DNA from: Polyangium spumosum
GTDB taxonomy: Bacteria; Myxococcota_A; Polyangia; Polyangiales; Polyangiaceae
DNA: 64,000 nucleotides
NCBI RefSeq assembly: GCF_009649845.1
Contig: NZ_WJIE01000008.1
Location: 62,001 to 126,000 of the forward strand
Direction of reading: 5' to 3'
Below are positions 43,593 to 49,506 of the stretch, piece by piece (the first letter of the stretch is position 1; each line of letters opens with the position of its first letter). A model generated the notes under the pieces. That model did not search any database. It worked only from the letters and a program-made list of their open reading frames with translations, and was not told the origin of the DNA. The position numbers and the translations under genes are program-made.

Positions 43593-43613
43593 CCCGACTC
43601 GTATCGGAGGCGG

Positions 43614-44342
43614 TCAGAGCTCGACGAGTTGTCGTTCGAGTTGATGCGGAAGGTCCCGAAGCTGTGTCGCGCAGCGGCAGCGATATTCGGCGGTTACCTG
43701 CTCTGGAACACCGAGATAACGCCTCATACGCTCTTCGAGATCTCTGACGGCCCTCTTCAATATCTCCGCTTCTGTTCGAGCCCTGTCGTCGTCGGAACGC
43801 TCGAGTCGATTTGCGAGGCGTATGAGGGTGATTCGCCTCTCCAGGTGAGAATGAATGAATTGCCGGCGCGCTTTTCGTTTCCGGACCTTGCGCTCGTCGT
43901 TGATGTCGTAGACGATTTCCGCGTACGTGCCCCTTTCGGTCCTCGGCACGAGCCTGTCACCGACCACCTCGAAGTGGTCAGCCCATGCGTCGACTGTCGG
44001 GTCGAGGAGCGGAGTACCGTGTTCGTCGTGAAGGGGCGTGTTGGAGCGCGCCCTGTTGCAGAACCAACAGGCGTAGAGAAGGTTCTCGTACACGTTTGCG
44101 AGATTCCGGTCCACGCTTTGCGGAGTGCAGTGCTCGACGGTCATCTGGTGCGGCGTTTCCTCGACACCGCGCTCCGTGAGATCACCCTCGTGCAGTAGAC
44201 ATAGCGCGCACGTGAAACCGAAATCCCAGCGAAGACAAGGCACGTATGCTCGATACCCGCCCTGCCAATCGGCCTTCTTCGGAGCGTGAGCCCGCTCGAA
44301 AGGTCTAGTCGGTGGTTGTGTCGTCGGCGGGAGTACCTTCAT
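43614..44342 (-). CDS. HNH endonuclease family protein
   Basis: A 242-residue protein. The HNH/treble-clef elements are TCALCLLHEGD, MTVEHCTPQS and NVYENLLYACWFCNRARS, giving two CxxC zinc pairs and the catalytic His-Asn-His/Asn order. The C-terminal 120 residues are a basic helical region (RKVRKRKARRQFIHSHLERR). It is the last gene of a four-gene minus-strand cassette and overlaps the preceding gene by 38 bp. Codon use is visibly less G/C-biased than in neighbours, suggesting transfer. Target unknown. Confidence 0.8.
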   Translation of the reverse strand: MKVLPPTTQPPTRPFERAHAPKKADWQGGYRAYVPCLRWDFGFTCALCLLHEGDLTERGVEETPHQMTVEHCTPQSVDRNLANVYENLLYACWFCNRARSNTPLHDEHGTPLLDPTVDAWADHFEVVGDRLVPRTERGTYAEIVYDINDERKVRKRKARRQFIHSHLERRITLIRLANRLERSDDDRARTEAEILKRAVRDLEERMRRYLGVPEQVTAEYRCRCATQLRDLPHQLERQLVEL

Positions 44343-44688
44343 AGTATTCGACGAGCTTCATGGCTCGCTGAACGAGCTCCGAGTCTTCGTAGGCGGTTGC
44401 TGCATGCTCTGGACTGCATTCCGTCTCGCTCCGATCCGCATATTCGATCTGGAGCTGACGTCGCCGTGCGATGGCAGCCTCGAGTTTTGCCTTTACCTCC
44501 GCGTCCTTCGGGCGCGCGTTCCGCTCATGCAAGAGCGCTGCGACTTCGTCATGCATGGCGTTGATCTGTCGTTCCAGCTCATCGAGCGAGGGGAGAGCTT
44601 TTCCGACCTGTGGCTGTTTACGATGCCAGGTCGCTCGGTGAATGCTCTTCCCTCGCCGCTTCTCGAGTTTTTGCGCAGCCAGACCCAT
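44305..44688 (-). CDS. Small coiled-coil protein of the ATPase/HNH cassette
   Basis: A 127-residue protein I do not recognise. A basic N-terminus (QKLEKRRGKSIHRATWHRK) is followed by a coiled coil (LDELERQINAMHDEVAALLHERN, KAKLEAAIARRRQLQIEYADR) and an acidic tail. The start ATG at 44688 has GGGAGG ending 5 nt upstream, placed within the end of the ATPase gene. Its 3' end overlaps the HNH gene by 38 bp. It may bridge ATPase and nuclease (inference). Confidence 0.75.
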   Translation of the reverse strand: MGLAAQKLEKRRGKSIHRATWHRKQPQVGKALPSLDELERQINAMHDEVAALLHERNARPKDAEVKAKLEAAIARRRQLQIEYADRSETECSPEHAATAYEDSELVQRAMKLVEYYEGTPADDTTTD

Positions 44689-44690
44689 GG

Positions 44691-45686
44691 TCACCTCCCG
44701 AGTCTCAACGTTTCGACGAGGTCGTGCGGAACGTGGGCCATGTCGACATCGCCCTCCCAGAATACGTTGGCGAGCGTGGGGACATGATCGACGAAAGCAA
44801 TTGTCTCCTCGATGCCCGCAAGGCTCGAGATCGATCCGAGTCGACTGCGAGCGAGCGCTCGCACGGCGTTTGGCGCTCGAACCCGGCGGTTGACGACGGG
44901 CTTCAAGTTCGGAACGATATCGTGGTGGCGGGCGATGTACTCGAGCGCGGGCACGAGATCGTTGGTATCACAGCTTGTGACCAGGAAGGGATTCGGCTCC
45001 CAGCGTACGCCGCCCATGGATGGGTAGTCGTTGGGCAGCTTCTTCGTCGGTTCGAGCAACATCGAGACGAGATCCAGGACTTCGTGAGGAAATCCCCAGA
45101 CGCCAGTCGGTAGATCCAGGACGACGTCGGTCAACGATGGAATCTGGGAGGGCAGTGCTCCCAGGGTCCGAAGGAGCGCGCGAGCCCAGTCGAACTCCTC
45201 GCCGTAAAACCACGCTGCGCTCTCGACCACGTCGTCGTAGGTCGACGAAGAGGGCAGGTACAAGACACCATCCTCACGCTGGTGCTTCCACACCAAGGCA
45301 TCCACTCGCGCGGCGTGCTCGTAACCGAATGCGTGGTTGAGTACGTCGTTCACGAAGGGCGGTGGATGAGGGAAGTACCTCCAGCGCTCTTCTGTCTGCA
45401 TCGCCGTGCGCCGTGCCGCTCGCAGCGCTCTCGTTTCGTTGACGGAGAAGAACCTTCCCGTCGGCAACGCGTCCAGGTCGAGAGAGCCATCCGTCTGGAG
45501 CGTGACGTCTGGCGCGCGCAGCTCCAGACCGTCCGCGAGGGACGTTCCCAGCAGATCGCAGTCGATGAGCAAGGGGACGCGGCCCAGACCGCAGAGCAGC
45601 TTGGCGCAGACGGTGGCCAGGGTCGACTTGCCGACGCCGCCCTTGACGGAGCAGAAGACGTGCAGGCGGATCGAGCGATCCGTCAC
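44691..45686 (-). CDS. ParA/MinD-like (SIMIBI) ATPase
   Basis: A 331-residue P-loop ATPase. The deviant Walker A CSVKGGVGKSTLATV with its signature Lys is at about residues 12-26, the A' motif is PLLIDCDLLGTSLADGL, and a Walker B-like DVVLDLPTG lies near the middle. It is longer than typical plasmid ParA and has no ParB or chromosomal partition partner nearby. The start is GTG at 45686, overlapping the previous stop (GTGA) with GGAG 8-9 nt upstream. Second gene of the cassette; codon use differs from flanking genes. Confidence 0.82.
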   Translation of the reverse strand: MTDRSIRLHVFCSVKGGVGKSTLATVCAKLLCGLGRVPLLIDCDLLGTSLADGLELRAPDVTLQTDGSLDLDALPTGRFFSVNETRALRAARRTAMQTEERWRYFPHPPPFVNDVLNHAFGYEHAARVDALVWKHQREDGVLYLPSSSTYDDVVESAAWFYGEEFDWARALLRTLGALPSQIPSLTDVVLDLPTGVWGFPHEVLDLVSMLLEPTKKLPNDYPSMGGVRWEPNPFLVTSCDTNDLVPALEYIARHHDIVPNLKPVVNRRVRAPNAVRALARSRLGSISSLAGIEETIAFVDHVPTLANVFWEGDVDMAHVPHDLVETLRLGR

Positions 45687-45916
45687 GTGCTCTCCTTCTC
45701 GAGGCCAAAGAAGCCGAGCACCTCGCGCATGCGCGGATCATCCAGGAAGGGGGAGCGCTGCGCAAGTCCCAGGAGCACGGTGCGAGCGCGCACCGCGTCG
45801 ACGACCTGCACCTGATGCGCACGGCAGGCCGCGAGGATGACGTCGATCCAGCGGCCGAGCTGCGCCACGTACGCGTCGCCACACGGCGCCCTGGGGCCCC
45901 CTCGCCCCTCTTGCAT
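45683..45916 (-). CDS. Small helical protein, first gene of the ATPase/HNH cassette
   Basis: A 77-residue protein I do not recognise: an Arg/Gly-rich start, then helical residues (LGRWIDVILAACRAHQVQVV, ARTVLLGLAQRSPF) and FFGLEKEST at the end. The ATG at 45916 has AGGTGG about 6-11 nt upstream, and the stop overlaps the ATPase start (GTGA). The tandem repeat array begins only 10 bp upstream of this start, so the leader of the cassette lies in the repeats. The frame continues further upstream into the repeats but without support. Confidence 0.55.
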   Translation of the reverse strand: MQEGRGGPRAPCGDAYVAQLGRWIDVILAACRAHQVQVVDAVRARTVLLGLAQRSPFLDDPRMREVLGFFGLEKEST

Positions 45917-45926
45917 AGGCCCACCT

Positions 45927-46172
45927 GGGCACCCAAGGCGGCATCCTGCCACTTCGCACAGCGGCGACTCGGCTGCCCAGGTGGCGCCGTGCAACTTTAC
46001 ATAGCGCTCCCTGGCTGCCCAGGCGGCGTCATGCGACTTCGCACAGCGGTGACTTGGCTGCCCAGCTGGCGCCGTGCGACTTTACACAGCGCTTCCTGGC
46101 CGCCCAGGCGGCGTCATGCGACTTCGCTCGGGGGCAACTCGGCTGCCCTGGCGGGGCCTTGCAACGGCTCTT
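45927..46172. repeat. Alternating 42/43 bp imperfect tandem repeat array
   Basis: Six units start at 45927, 45971, 46013, 46056, 46098 and 46141. Each begins GGCTGCCCAGG(C/T)GGCG and contains TGC(A/G)ACTT. Two unit types alternate: one with GCCGTGC...TTTACA(C/T)AGCGC (units at 45971 and 46056, 42 bp) and one with GTCATGCGACTTCGC (units at 46013 and 46098, 43 bp), giving an 85 bp higher-order period. There are no unique spacers, so it is not CRISPR. Because 85 is not a multiple of 3, a conserved repeat peptide is unlikely. It lies between the cassette leader and the 3' end of the gene at 46172-46864. Confidence 0.88.
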
Positions 46173-46864
46173 CAGGGCGAGGGCTGCGTGGGCTCGTCGA
46201 CGATCACGGGCTTCGTGCGTTGTTGCTCGGCGAGGTCGTCGAAGATCTCGGGCATCATCGAGACTCTGTCGAGCGGGCGCAGCACGCCCTCGATGATCGA
46301 CTTCGTGGCCGTGTAGCGGCGCAACCAGGAGGCGCGGGCGCTGGCGACCTCCGGCGTCATCTGGTGCCGGTCGATACGCGCGCGCCGCACGCCTTCGTTC
46401 AGCGAGGACAGGGCGTCGCGCACCACGAGCAGGTCGGCCGACCAGGTCGCGTGCTCGGGCAGGCTCGCCTTGTATTTCTCGACGGCCGTACTCGCGTGAT
46501 TGAGCGCCGCGGCGAGCTTGACGGGGCGCCGCCGCAGGATGGTGGTCAGGGTCTCGCCCTGGAGGATGTCGTTCGCGATGGCGTCGCCGTTCGGGCGGGA
46601 TTCGGCGTACCGCACGAGCCGCCGCAGGAGGGTGCGCCCCGCGGCGACGACGTCCGCCTTTGATTCGTAGGTCACGATCTCGATCGCGCCCGCCTTTTCG
46701 AGCGCGGCCTTCATCGCGTCGGTCTCGCTCGCGAGGCGCGTCGCGGCGACCTTGATCATCGGATCGAGCTCCGGATCCAGCCCGACCACGAGCGCCAGGA
46801 TCTGCGAGACCGCGAACCCGCCATAAGCGATGGTCTCGTATTGGTCGATGTGCGTGTCCGCCAT
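46172..46864 (-). CDS. Helical protein of unknown function
   Basis: A 230-residue, mostly alpha-helical soluble protein with no recognised motif. Helices include AYGGFAVSQILALVVGLD, ATRLASETDAMKAALEKAG and ATWSADLLVVRDALSSLNEG. GC and codon use match the chromosomal background rather than the adjacent cassette. Its 3' end runs up to the last repeat unit. Confidence 0.7.
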   Translation of the reverse strand: MADTHIDQYETIAYGGFAVSQILALVVGLDPELDPMIKVAATRLASETDAMKAALEKAGAIEIVTYESKADVVAAGRTLLRRLVRYAESRPNGDAIANDILQGETLTTILRRRPVKLAAALNHASTAVEKYKASLPEHATWSADLLVVRDALSSLNEGVRRARIDRHQMTPEVASARASWLRRYTATKSIIEGVLRPLDRVSMMPEIFDDLAEQQRTKPVIVDEPTQPSP

Positions 46865-46989
46865 GGCGCGCAGTGTCGGCCAGCTCTCGATCCCTGGTCA
46901 AGAGGGATCGAAGCGACCGGGACGCTTTGTCGCGTCCTCCGGTACTCTCCCGCCACGCGGGCGCGTGACGCGTCCGATGCGAGGTGTTC

Positions 46990-49506
46990 ATGGCTTTTCG
47001 ATCAAAACGGAATGGATGGCTCGCCGCGGCGGGCGTCTTCGCGCTCGCCCTCTCGGCGCTCGGCCAGGGATGTGGTGACGGATCGAGCACGGGTACGGGC
47101 GGCGCGGGCGCGGGCGGGCCCGGCTCGGGCGGGATGGGCGGCGACGGCGGGACGTTCACCGTCGGCTCCGCGCAAGGCGGCGGGTTCCCGGGGACGTGTG
47201 ATCCGACGTGCGACCCTGCGAGCGAGGTCTGCTCGCACGGCGTCTGCGTGCCCGTGAAGGGCTGCGGCAACGACGCGGATTGCCAGAACGACACGTACTG
47301 CGAGCCCATGTCGAAGCAATGCGTGCCGTGGGAGAGCAAGGCGCCGCCGAACGATCCGACGTGTATCAACGTCATCGCGGCCGGGCAGTTCTCGCCGCGC
47401 GTGAAGTGCGAGTTCAGCACGGCGCCCGAGGGGGATCCGTTCCCCGGGCACGTCGACGTGCAGGGCACGCCGATCGTGGCGAACTTCAACAAACCGGCGG
47501 CCGCGGGCTCGCCGAGCATCGTCGCGGCGTTCACGGCGACCGTGGTGGCGAATTACACCGAGGACGCGGGCATGATCCGCGTGCTCAGCGGGAAGGATTG
47601 TTCGCTGGAGGCAAACCTCGGCGGCACGGACGTCGACGGGGACGGCGCGGTGGACTGGCTCGTCTCGTCGTCGACGCTCGCGGCGGGGGATCTCGACGGC
47701 GACGGCGTGGCCGAGATCGTCGCGTACGGGGCGGACGGCTCGACGCTCGCGTTCACGAAGAAGGCGGGGGCGTGGGGGCTGCTCTGGAAATCGGCCCACC
47801 AGGCCGGCATCGTGGGAGGCCCCTGCGATTTCAACCTGCACCGCTGCCCCGTGGGCTGGGCGGGGCCCTCGATTCACGACATCGACGACGACGGCAAGCC
47901 CGAGATCCTGCGCGAGGGCGCCGTCCTGCGCGCGGACGGCACGCTCGCGTCGGGCGCTCCGCCGGGGTATGCGAGTTATGGGTCCGGCCTCTTCTCCGTG
48001 GTGGCGAACCTCGATCAGGACCCGAACATCGAGCTCACGAACGGGCAATTCGTCTGGGAGTGGGCGAACGGCGCGTGGGCGCAGGAGCCGGGTTTCCCGG
48101 GCGCGTCGGCGTCGGCGCCGGGGCACGTGGCGATCGCCGATTTCGGCGCGTATGGAGAGGGCGCGCCGGCGAAGAACCCCGAGATCGTGGTCGTGCGATC
48201 GAGCCTCGTGATGATTTACGCGATCGACGGCACGCTCGTGCAGCCGCCCGTGGCCGTGCCCGGTGCGGGGGGCGGCGGGCCGCCCACGGTCAGCGATTTC
48301 GACGGGGATGGCCTGCCCGAGGTCGCGGTGGCCGGGCAGGCGTTTTACACGATCTACGACCTCGATTGTGGCGCCGCGCCGAGGCCCGGCGGGCAATGCA
48401 ACCTCGCGCGTTGTGATTTCGCGGGCGGCACGTGCGCGGCGGGCGGCTACATCCTCTGGTCGAAATCGACGCAGGACCTCTCGTCGAACGTGACGGGCTC
48501 GAGCGTCTTCGATTTCGAGGCCGACGGCTCGAGCGAGGTCGTCTACGGCGACGAGTGTTTCGTCCGCGTGTACGACGGGAACACGGGCGACGTGCTGTTC
48601 AGCCAGTATCGCTCGTCGTGCACGTGGTACGAGAACCCGCTCATCGCGGACGTCGACGGCAATTTCCGCGCGGACCTGGTCACGCCGTCGAACAAGGCGT
48701 GCTCGCCCGACGGGACGGGCATCGTCTGCCAGACGCTCGACGCGAACGGCGTGGATCCGCAGTTCCCCGGCGTGCGGTGCGAGGCGGCGGCCGATTGTGT
48801 CTCGGGGGTGTGTGACGCCGGGTTCTGCCGGTGCACGGAGACGAAACAATGCTGCGCGGCGCAGGACGACGCGGCCTGCATCGAGGAGGGCCTGAAATGC
48901 GCGCCGCCGCCCGACGGCACGCCCGGTACGGGGAGCACCTGCCGCGCCGGCCATCCGCACGGGGTCTCGGGGATCCGCGTGTATTCGGACGCGAACGACA
49001 AGTGGGTCCGCTCGAGGACGATCTGGAACCAGCACCCGTACGCGGTGACGCACGTGAACGAGGACGGGACGATCCCGCAGACGAGCGCGTGGACGAACAA
49101 CTGGGACGACCCCACGCTCAACAATTTCCGGCAAAACGTGCCCGGGAACGCGAACGGCGCGGCGACGGGGGATCCGACGGCGGGCGCGAGCACGCAATAC
49201 GCGTGCAGCGGGCAAGGCGCGGAGATCGGCGCGCCGATCTGCAACCGCGGGGCCGATCCCGTGGGCGCCGGGCTCTCGGTCGGCTTCTACGTCGGGCAGC
49301 AGAAGGTGTGCGAGGCGAAGACCACCGAGGTCCTGCAGCCGGGCGAGTGCCGGCTCGTGTCGTGCAACTGGAGCATGCCGCCGACGATCGAGGCCGAAAA
49401 AGTGGACGTGACCGTCATCCCGAACGACGACGGCGCGTACGCCGAATGCAAACCAGGCAATAACCTGGGGACGATCGTCGGCGTGTTCTGCAAGCCGCCG
49501 GCTTGA
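46990..49506 (+). CDS. Large secreted lipoprotein with FG-GAP/VCBS repeats
   Basis: An 838-residue lipoprotein; signal peptide with lipobox LGQGC, then a Gly-rich tether. Cys-rich EGF-like segments (CDPTCDPASEVCSHGVC; CVSGVCDAGFCRC) flank a propeller of FG-GAP-type repeats with calcium loops DVDGDGAVDW, DLDGDGVAEIV, DFDGDGLPEV. A C-terminal beta domain with paired Cys follows. Probably a cell-surface binding protein. I chose ATG 46990 with GAGG upstream rather than a GTG two codons earlier. Confidence 0.78.
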   Translation: MAFRSKRNGWLAAAGVFALALSALGQGCGDGSSTGTGGAGAGGPGSGGMGGDGGTFTVGSAQGGGFPGTCDPTCDPASEVCSHGVCVPVKGCGNDADCQNDTYCEPMSKQCVPWESKAPPNDPTCINVIAAGQFSPRVKCEFSTAPEGDPFPGHVDVQGTPIVANFNKPAAAGSPSIVAAFTATVVANYTEDAGMIRVLSGKDCSLEANLGGTDVDGDGAVDWLVSSSTLAAGDLDGDGVAEIVAYGADGSTLAFTKKAGAWGLLWKSAHQAGIVGGPCDFNLHRCPVGWAGPSIHDIDDDGKPEILREGAVLRADGTLASGAPPGYASYGSGLFSVVANLDQDPNIELTNGQFVWEWANGAWAQEPGFPGASASAPGHVAIADFGAYGEGAPAKNPEIVVVRSSLVMIYAIDGTLVQPPVAVPGAGGGGPPTVSDFDGDGLPEVAVAGQAFYTIYDLDCGAAPRPGGQCNLARCDFAGGTCAAGGYILWSKSTQDLSSNVTGSSVFDFEADGSSEVVYGDECFVRVYDGNTGDVLFSQYRSSCTWYENPLIADVDGNFRADLVTPSNKACSPDGTGIVCQTLDANGVDPQFPGVRCEAAADCVSGVCDAGFCRCTETKQCCAAQDDAACIEEGLKCAPPPDGTPGTGSTCRAGHPHGVSGIRVYSDANDKWVRSRTIWNQHPYAVTHVNEDGTIPQTSAWTNNWDDPTLNNFRQNVPGNANGAATGDPTAGASTQYACSGQGAEIGAPICNRGADPVGAGLSVGFYVGQQKVCEAKTTEVLQPGECRLVSCNWSMPPTIEAEKVDVTVIPNDDGAYAECKPGNNLGTIVGVFCKPPA

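What the first reader, a model, noticed from the sequence alone, without database searches (positions are those of the whole stretch)
43614..45916. Candidate undescribed system: small protein, ParA/MinD-like ATPase, coiled-coil protein, HNH nuclease
Four minus-strand genes are tightly coupled (GTGA overlap, start inside the SD region, 38 bp overlap), have less GC-biased codon use than both flanks, and combine a SIMIBI ATPase with a nuclease. No partition or flagellar partner is present. ATPase plus HNH is a design seen in defence (for example Septu, with a different ATPase class).
Basis: inference. Interest (0 to 1): 0.75.

Follow-up and report, generated by a model that had tools for sequence, protein, structure and literature searches.

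The report
Gutted bacterial conflict operon: ATPase plus nuclease
Four coupled genes in a myxobacterium look like what is left of a larger, probably anti-invader system in which a ParA/MinD-type ATPase works beside a giant sensor-effector protein and an exchangeable DNA-cutting enzyme; here the giant protein has been reduced to a 77-residue stub.

Summary
The four minus-strand genes exist as described. Gene 1, however, is not an independent small protein: its residues 14-39 and 44-74 match residues 61-86 and 2299-2329 of a 2332-aa protein that precedes the same ATPase-adaptor-HNH trio in Sorangium cellulosum So ceGT47. It is an in-frame stub of a giant protein. I collected 18 distinct loci of this ATPase outside the window. 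In 18 of 18 an upstream ORF ends 21-51 nt before the P-loop codon: the giant protein in 12, with a SIR2, TIR, EAD1 or (below cut-off) nitrilase N terminus in 7 of these 12 by Pfam, and a shorter partner in 6, of which 5 also carry GAP1, part of published GTPase-centred conflict systems. Downstream cassettes vary (HNH, PIN, Uma2, MBL). Four of 5 congeners have the site empty. Reading: a laterally acquired conflict system switched by a SIMIBI ATPase, its sensor deleted here. The "undescribed ATPase-HNH system" is partly right; it is a new variant of a known kind, and this copy is incomplete.

The parts
45683..45916 (-). 77-codon in-frame stub of a giant nitrilase-TPR-helical-repeat protein gene: residues 14-39 = its residues 61-86, residues 44-74 = its residues 2299-2329; about 2,200 codons missing between
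   Evidence: Local alignment scores to the L044 protein 66 (N part; best of 500 shuffles 37) and 92 (C part; best of 500 shuffles 42); both are the best places in the whole 2332 aa
44691..45686 (-). SIMIBI (ParA/MinD-type) ATPase, 331 aa, KGGVGKST Walker A
   Evidence: CbiA 26.7 bits over the 25.4 cut-off; model pLDDT 87.7, pTM 0.91; FleN Z 20.6, rmsd 2.9, 238 residues; K15, K20, D42, D44, D191, N266 invariant in 15 of 15 rows (two rows are one place)
44305..44688 (-).
   Evidence: No family above a curated cut-off; homologue in L044 at the same place, 38%, E 2e-15
43614..44342 (-). HNH-type nuclease, 242 aa, with C45, C48, H71, N87, C92, C95, N96
   Evidence: Pfam HNH 21.7 bits over the 21.4 cut-off; PADLOC PtuB1 E 1.3e-14; these residues invariant in 4 of 4 aligned homologues
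45919..46173 (.). Three 85-bp direct repeats (82% and 71% to the first) directly upstream of the stub, where the first 60 codons of the large gene would lie
   Evidence: one further 72% copy in this genome, none in 5 congeners
43593..47010 (.). Approximate 3.4-kb block absent at this site in 4 of 5 congeners (holds all the above and the 46172-46864 gene)
   Evidence: Flanking genes lie about 70 bp apart in L097, L098, L099, L101

Best explanation
This is the remnant of a laterally acquired conflict (probably anti-phage) system. In the complete form, a giant protein carries a variable N-terminal domain (nitrilase, SIR2, TIR or the adaptor EAD1), then TPR and helical-repeat arms that would sense an invader. 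The ParA/MinD-type ATPase, coupled by stop/start overlap, would bind the giant protein's C-terminal arm and act as the ATP-dependent switch that sets the threshold, as MoxR ATPases or GTPases are proposed to do in related systems. A small downstream protein would link the switch to an exchangeable second effector, here an HNH DNase. In this genome an in-frame deletion removed about 2,200 codons of the giant gene and 85-bp repeats stand where its 5' end should be, so sensor and first effector are gone; ATPase, adaptor and HNH remain open and motif-intact, probably unable to respond to the original trigger. Shown: operon architecture, homology, the stub, the empty site, the predicted fold of the ATPase. 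Inferred: sensing, switching, binding, DNA cleavage and anti-phage role.
For: Intact operon in So ceGT47: 2332-aa protein, ATPase 58-60%, CC 38%, HNH 48%; P0001 and the L044 ATPase are sisters at 100/99. The stub matches both ends of the giant protein collinearly. In 18 of 18 other loci an upstream same-strand ORF ends 21-51 nt before the P-loop codon. In the order, of 9 ATPase places in 8 of 183 genomes, 7 have the giant protein next to them, 1 has another partner, 1 is the window. A model of the giant protein's C-terminal half found those same 7 genomes and no other of the 183 (it was built from these 7 among its 12 rows, and only 3 candidates a genome were scored). N-terminal domains over cut-off: SIR2 in L033, L036, L049; EAD1 in L035; TIR in L040; below cut-off: nitrilase in L044 and L047. 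GAP1-N1 in 4 of 4 proteins tested; DO-GTPase1, DO-GTPase2 and GASH in L055. A relative of the L044 nitrilase region (43%) is fused to a P-loop domain and WD40 repeats next to McrBC-type genes elsewhere in this genome.
Against: No phage assay exists, and the literature searches made found nothing on this ATPase family in defence. The giant protein's C-terminal model has no confident PDB match (no Foldseek E <= 0.001; best VIA Z 10.3, ambiguous for helical repeats). The nitrilase calls are below Pfam's cut-off. L032, L034, L046 gave no N-terminal domain above cut-off, L043 none at 0.01; L045 was not scanned. The stub's N-terminal match is clear for L044 and L032 only: in L046, L047 and L049 29, 89 and 52 of 500 shuffles reach it, in L045 343. 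Sequence similarity to P0003 was seen only in L044; a gappy alignment with an L113 gene has no BLAST support. ATPase departures from family-conserved columns are as few (1 of 35) as in intact loci (1 to 7), so decay after the loss is not visible.
Confidence: 0.66

Rival explanations
1. The window carries a working minimal system: ATPase, adaptor and HNH nuclease act alone, and the stub survives as a leader ORF that keeps the ATPase translated by coupling.
For: ATPase, CC and HNH are open and ATPase and HNH motif-intact; the deletion is in frame and the GTGA overlap is kept; codon-position differences against L044 are skewed to the third position for the ATPase (0.35, 0.22, 0.54).
Against: The giant protein is present in 12 of 12 other distinct loci of this ATPase branch (fork support 91/91). 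The codon skew covers the whole time since the split from L044 and does not date the loss; for HNH positions 1 and 2 are equal (0.33, 0.33).
Confidence: 0.22
2. CC plus HNH is a mobile two-gene nuclease module (stand-alone defence or toxin-like) that happens to sit behind the ATPase; the ATPase is not its switch.
For: HNH homologues at 42% (G211, L113) and 40% (G408, L114) lie in genomes without an ATPase match at E <= 1e-15; L113 has a small gene just upstream of its HNH.
Against: Order and overlaps of all genes are the same in the window and So ceGT47 although the proteins are only 35-58% identical; other ATPase loci have a nuclease-type gene downstream (PIN in L033, DUF3368 in L036, Uma2 in L043).
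Confidence: 0.15
3. Cellular positioning or partition set (ParA/MinD/FlhG type).
For: The ATPase model is closest to FleN, FlhG, ParA and Soj.
Against: Protein-family matches cover the nucleotide-binding part and are weak; 5 of 5 congeners lack it; the neighbours read as nuclease and conflict-protein genes, not parB, minC/E or flagellar genes (read from gene calls, not searched by model).
Confidence: 0.03
4. The stub is an assembly error and the genome really holds a full-length gene.
For: Repeats at the breakpoint; draft assembly of 61 contigs.
Against: No match to the giant protein's C-terminal half at E <= 1e-10 in this genome (only 3 of 56 first-look candidates were scored), and its N-terminal half matches at E <= 0.001 only a protein of other make-up about 250 kb away.
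Confidence: 0.05

Closest known systems
GAP1-N1 GTPase-centric conflict systems (Kaur et al. 2020, PMC7159879; abstract, passages and sections 28-29 read)
   Same: Related ATPases sit in such loci: GAP1-N1 in L037, L039, L042, L055, with DO-GTPase1/2 and GASH in L055. NTPase switch plus variable effectors.
   Different: The window's branch has no GAP1-motif ORF in the stretches read (0 of 12 loci, 8-21 kb each). In the passages read (12 of 38 places shown) a MinD/ParA domain appears only as a predicted inactive effector domain; here it is a separate protein with an intact nucleotide-binding motif.
TPR-GreA/B-C-PIN conflict proteins (PMC8195603; passages read)
   Same: Variable N-terminal domains (SIR2, TIR, EAD) on a TPR-containing core; weak PIN-TPR-GreABC match in L034 (E 0.027).
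   Different: 0 of 11 genomes have a match over Pfam's cut-off; described as mostly standalone genes, whereas here an ATPase and a variable cassette follow; long helical-repeat C-terminal arm.
Septu (PtuA/PtuB)
   Same: ATPase plus HNH logic; HNH matches PtuB1 models (E 1.3e-14).
   Different: ATPase is SIMIBI, not the PtuA class; extra giant protein and adaptor in the complete operon.
DRT1 nitrilase effector (PMC13275509; passages read)
   Same: A nitrilase domain at work in anti-phage defence; the L044 N-terminal region matches PADLOC RT_UG29 (E 1.6e-4; that this stretch of the profile is its nitrilase part is recalled) and CARF_nitrilase (E 0.003) models.
   Different: No reverse transcriptase was seen in the giant protein; the nitrilase is N-terminal on a TPR scaffold.

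Membership tests
ParA/MinD (SIMIBI) ATPases | Deviant Walker A KGGVGK[ST] and SIMIBI fold | tested here: met
   Sequence; predicted model against FleN Z 20.6 over 238 residues, rmsd 2.9; CbiA over cut-off, Pfam ParA 26.8 just under its 27.1
ParA/MinD (SIMIBI) ATPases | ParB/parS, MinC/E or flagellar partner beside it | tested here: inconclusive
   None recognised among neighbouring gene calls; no model search was made
Septu | PtuA-class ATPase | tested here: not met
   P0001 matches no PtuA model in PADLOC at E <= 1; only PDC-M28B, E 3.2e-6
Septu | PtuB HNH nuclease | tested here: inconclusive
   PADLOC PtuB1 E 1.3e-14, but NCBIfam PtuB equivalog 9.5 bits against a 150 cut-off
TPR-GreA/B-C-PIN conflict proteins (giant partner) | PIN-TPR-GreABC domain PF20698 over cut-off | tested here: not met
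   0 of 11 genomes over cut-off; L034 15.2 bits against 27.8
TPR-GreA/B-C-PIN conflict proteins (giant partner) | Variable N-terminal effector followed by TPR | tested here: met
   Over cut-off: SIR2 in L033, L036, L049, EAD1 in L035, TIR in L040; TPR over cut-off in L033 and L047, below it in L035, L040, L044, L046, L049. GreA/B-C domain itself was not tested apart
GAP1-N1 GTPase-centric systems | GAP1 plus DO-GTPases in the locus | tested here: not met
   For the window's branch: GAP1-motif ORF in 0 of 12 giant-protein loci, against 5 of 6 other loci; GAP1-N1 confirmed by Pfam in 4 of 4 tested
Anti-phage defence | Protection against phage | not testable with these tools
   No assay

The most novel reading that the evidence does not exclude
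A previously undescribed class of bacterial conflict system in which a SIMIBI (ParA/MinD) ATPase is the energy-dependent switch, in the place of MoxR ATPases or GTPases: an effector-TPR-PIN-like-helical-repeat giant, its coupled ATPase, an adaptor and an exchangeable nuclease, with the same ATPase family also built into GAP1/GTPase systems.
Probability: 0.45. Interest if true: 0.72.

Novelty: new variant of a known kind. Interest (0 to 1): 0.5.

Why it matters
SIMIBI ATPases are known from partition, division and flagellar placement (recalled). If they also gate suicidal or nuclease effectors, that adds a switch type to bacterial immunity and gives So ceGT47 as an intact operon to test. The window copy shows how such a system can break: the sensor-effector goes while the switch and nuclease stay.

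Tried and rejected
Pattern scan of genome contigs with P0001 alone found no relative; the alignment A1 found 24 loci, of which 6 are weak. Plasmids, phages and viral contigs: no match to the ATPase at the limits used. Rfam: none at gathering score. Promoter/terminator scan: nothing above chance. Solved-structure sequence searches: only weak ParA/MinD-type hits for P0001 and nothing useful for P0002. Giant-protein C-half against PDB: HEAT/ARM-like rows only, not decisive. Literature searches for KGGVGR, SIMIBI plus anti-phage, ParA-like ATPase plus HNH endonuclease plus defense system, TPR-GreAB-C-PIN, ParA/SIR2/TPR/anti-phage/KGGVGK, myxobacteria/nitrilase/defence islands, 6A-MBL, MinD-like plus antiphage gave no paper on this system by their listings. 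A search for remnants of the first codons of the giant gene upstream of the stub found none clear; the only hint is L032 residues 18-81 at 45976-45800, E 0.89. The stub's N part also matches the nitrilase protein 250 kb away (score 57), less well than L044 (66), so an origin from that copy is less likely but not excluded. Transposon cargo was considered: no transposase was recognised among gene calls in the block (no dedicated search).

The giant-protein model was built from the 12 loci it finds, so their match is by construction; their homology rests on all-against-all BLAST.

Full report
OBSERVATION. The four minus-strand ORFs and their couplings are as reported. Against 7 other window genes with GC3 0.852-0.967, the ATPase (0.780), coiled-coil (0.641) and HNH (0.671) genes stand out; gene 1 (0.846) barely does. 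The same four-gene order recurs in Sorangium cellulosum So ceGT47 (L044) with the same GTGA overlap and an overlapping CC/HNH pair, although the proteins are only 35-58% identical. Coupling is therefore conserved, not chance.

GENE 1 IS A STUB. In L044 the ATPase is preceded by a 2332-aa protein. The 77-aa window product aligns by residues 14-39 to its residues 61-86 (score 66; best of 500 shuffles 37) and by residues 44-74 to its residues 2299-2329 (92; best of 500 shuffles 42); shuffles were scored against the first 200 and last 120 residues, and both places are also the best in the whole protein. L032 shows the same pattern (49 against 41, 60 against 38). In L046 and L047 the same places score best, but for the N part 29 and 89 of 500 shuffles reach the score, for the C part 7 and 1. 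L049, which has SIR2 in place of nitrilase, fails for the N part (52 of 500) and passes for the C part (0 of 500), as would be expected; L045, which lacks the N-terminal part, likewise (343 and 0 of 500). The junction lies immediately before the VFPEY motif of the nitrilase domain (that this Glu is catalytic is recalled). The first 60 codons are not recognisable; three 85-bp repeats stand in their place.

THE GIANT PARTNER. Twelve loci have it, 1,088-2,332 aa as called. Most pairs of these proteins match by BLAST in the C-terminal half. N-terminal domains by Pfam: SIR2 over cut-off in L033, L036, L049; EAD1 in L035; TIR in L040; nitrilase below cut-off in L044 (E 7.8e-4) and L047 (0.014). L032 and L046 have no Pfam call there but align with L044 through that region. 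L034 gave no N-terminal domain over cut-off and L043 none at 0.01; L045 was not scanned and begins without the N-terminal part. In L044 the three segments FPEY, PKLH and LICLD are present. A TPR region follows, over cut-off in L033 and L047 only. No P-loop pattern was found in any of the 12, which fits the ATPase being the nucleotide-binding subunit. A model of L044 residues 1090-2280 (pLDDT 84.2, pTM 0.80) is mostly helical. Foldseek finds nothing at E <= 0.001, and VIA-align gives HEAT/ARM-repeat rows with Z up to 10.3, within the range of chance for helical proteins. PIN-like character rests on weak Pfam hits (L034, L047) and on the strand-helix order at the model's start; PF20698 is over its cut-off in 0 of 11 genomes.

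THE ATPASE. Fifteen aligned rows share K15, K20, D42, D44, D191 and N266 (two rows, L045 and L116, are one place). The model is confident (pLDDT 87.7, pTM 0.91) and closest to FleN, FlhG, ParA and Soj (FleN Z 20.6, rmsd 2.9, 238 residues). The window protein pairs with L044 at 100/99 support; other deep forks are partly unresolved. It is alone of its kind in its genome (next own-genome match E 0.008).

FIXED PARTNERSHIP, VARIABLE CASSETTE. In 18 of 18 distinct loci outside the window a same-strand ORF ends 21-51 nt before the P-loop codon (in L041 this ORF is cut by the contig end). In the order, of 9 ATPase places in 8 of 183 genomes, 7 have the giant protein beside them, 1 another partner, 1 is the window. 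A search with the giant protein's C-terminal half finds the same 7 genomes and none of the other 176, but the model was built from these 7 among 12 rows and only 3 candidates a genome were scored. Downstream genes differ: HNH (window, L044), PIN_3 (L033), DUF3368 (L036), Uma2 (L043), metallo-beta-lactamase fold (L055); 6 of the 10 downstream proteins tested matched no Pfam family above cut-off. The HNH search found 7 of 183 genomes: the window's, So ceGT47 (51%), two at 40-42% without this ATPase (L113, L114) and three at 24-35%, so the HNH is an exchangeable module.

LINK TO CONFLICT SYSTEMS. Six loci, which group apart in the tree (a fork drawn open), have a shorter partner. Five of these 6 carry an ORF with the GAP1 motif; all 4 tested by Pfam are GAP1-N1, and L055 also has DO-GTPase1, DO-GTPase2 and GASH. 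The sixth, L041, is a 6-kb contig. In the window's own genome, about 250 kb away, a relative of the L044 nitrilase region (43%) is fused to a P-loop domain (GEYGSGKST; NACHT-like by recall, no Pfam hit for that part or for the nitrilase at 0.001), pentapeptides and WD40 repeats, beside McrBC-type and ResIII helicase genes. Kaur et al. 2020 (PMC7159879; abstract, passages, sections 28-29) propose NTPase switches and variable effectors for such systems; DRT1 shows that a nitrilase domain can act in phage defence (PMC13275509; passages).

HISTORY. In 4 of 5 congeners the two flanking genes are about 70 bp apart; the window has about 3.4 kb more, with homology ending at 43595-43600 and resuming at 47011-47017. 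The fifth, G369, has another gene after the left flank. None of the 5 has an ATPase match at E <= 1e-15. Lower GC3 of these genes in both the window and L044 (L044: 0.794-0.862 against 0.941-0.980 in 3 other genes) agrees with lateral gain; loss in the congeners is not excluded.

MECHANISM. Most likely the giant protein senses and carries the first effector, the ATPase is the ATP-dependent threshold switch on its C-terminal arm, and the small protein hands the signal to the HNH nuclease. Only gene order, homology, stub, empty site and predicted ATPase fold are shown; sensing, binding, switching and cleavage are inferred. In the window the sensor is lost, so the remaining trio is either an orphan (more likely) or a reduced working system. 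ATPase departures at family-conserved columns (1 of 35) are no more than in intact loci (1 to 7), so the loss may be recent or the trio still selected.

LIMITS. Gene calls outside the window come from a simple codon-usage script, not a published gene finder. Many loci are from metagenome-assembled genomes. The pattern scan of genome contigs cannot give frequencies. Whether any of this stops phages is untested.

Noticed in passing
L127:4203-10049 (G000:C8:356202-362048): 1948-aa protein with a nitrilase-like N terminus, P-loop, pentapeptide and WD40 repeats between McrBC-type genes and a ResIII-HIT-PLD-S24 protein: a likely STAND-type defence protein in a defence island about 250 kb from the window locus.
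   Followed up: partly
45919-46173: Three 85-bp tandem repeats at the breakpoint; one 72% copy at G000:C10:233993-234143 and none in 5 congeners.
   Followed up: partly
46172-46864: 230-aa gene inside the inserted block; relatives in 6 of 6 genomes of the genus, the nearest (62-64%) at other places in G369 and G367; no Pfam family above cut-off.
   Followed up: partly
L113:8413-9287, L114:8862-9548: HNH homologues (42%, 40%) without the ATPase; L113 has a small gene just upstream, a possible stand-alone cassette.
   Followed up: partly
L037, L039, L042, L055: The same ATPase family inside GAP1 loci, with an MBL-fold gene tested in L037 and L055; the sections read of the published description do not mention either.
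   Followed up: partly
L100:4181-5749: Fifth congener (G369) has a different gene after the same left flank, so this site may be a variable spot.
   Followed up: no
L032:2415-3119: Downstream gene of the L032 system has an ILLGRDFL segment that recalls retropepsin-like proteases; no Pfam match.
   Followed up: no
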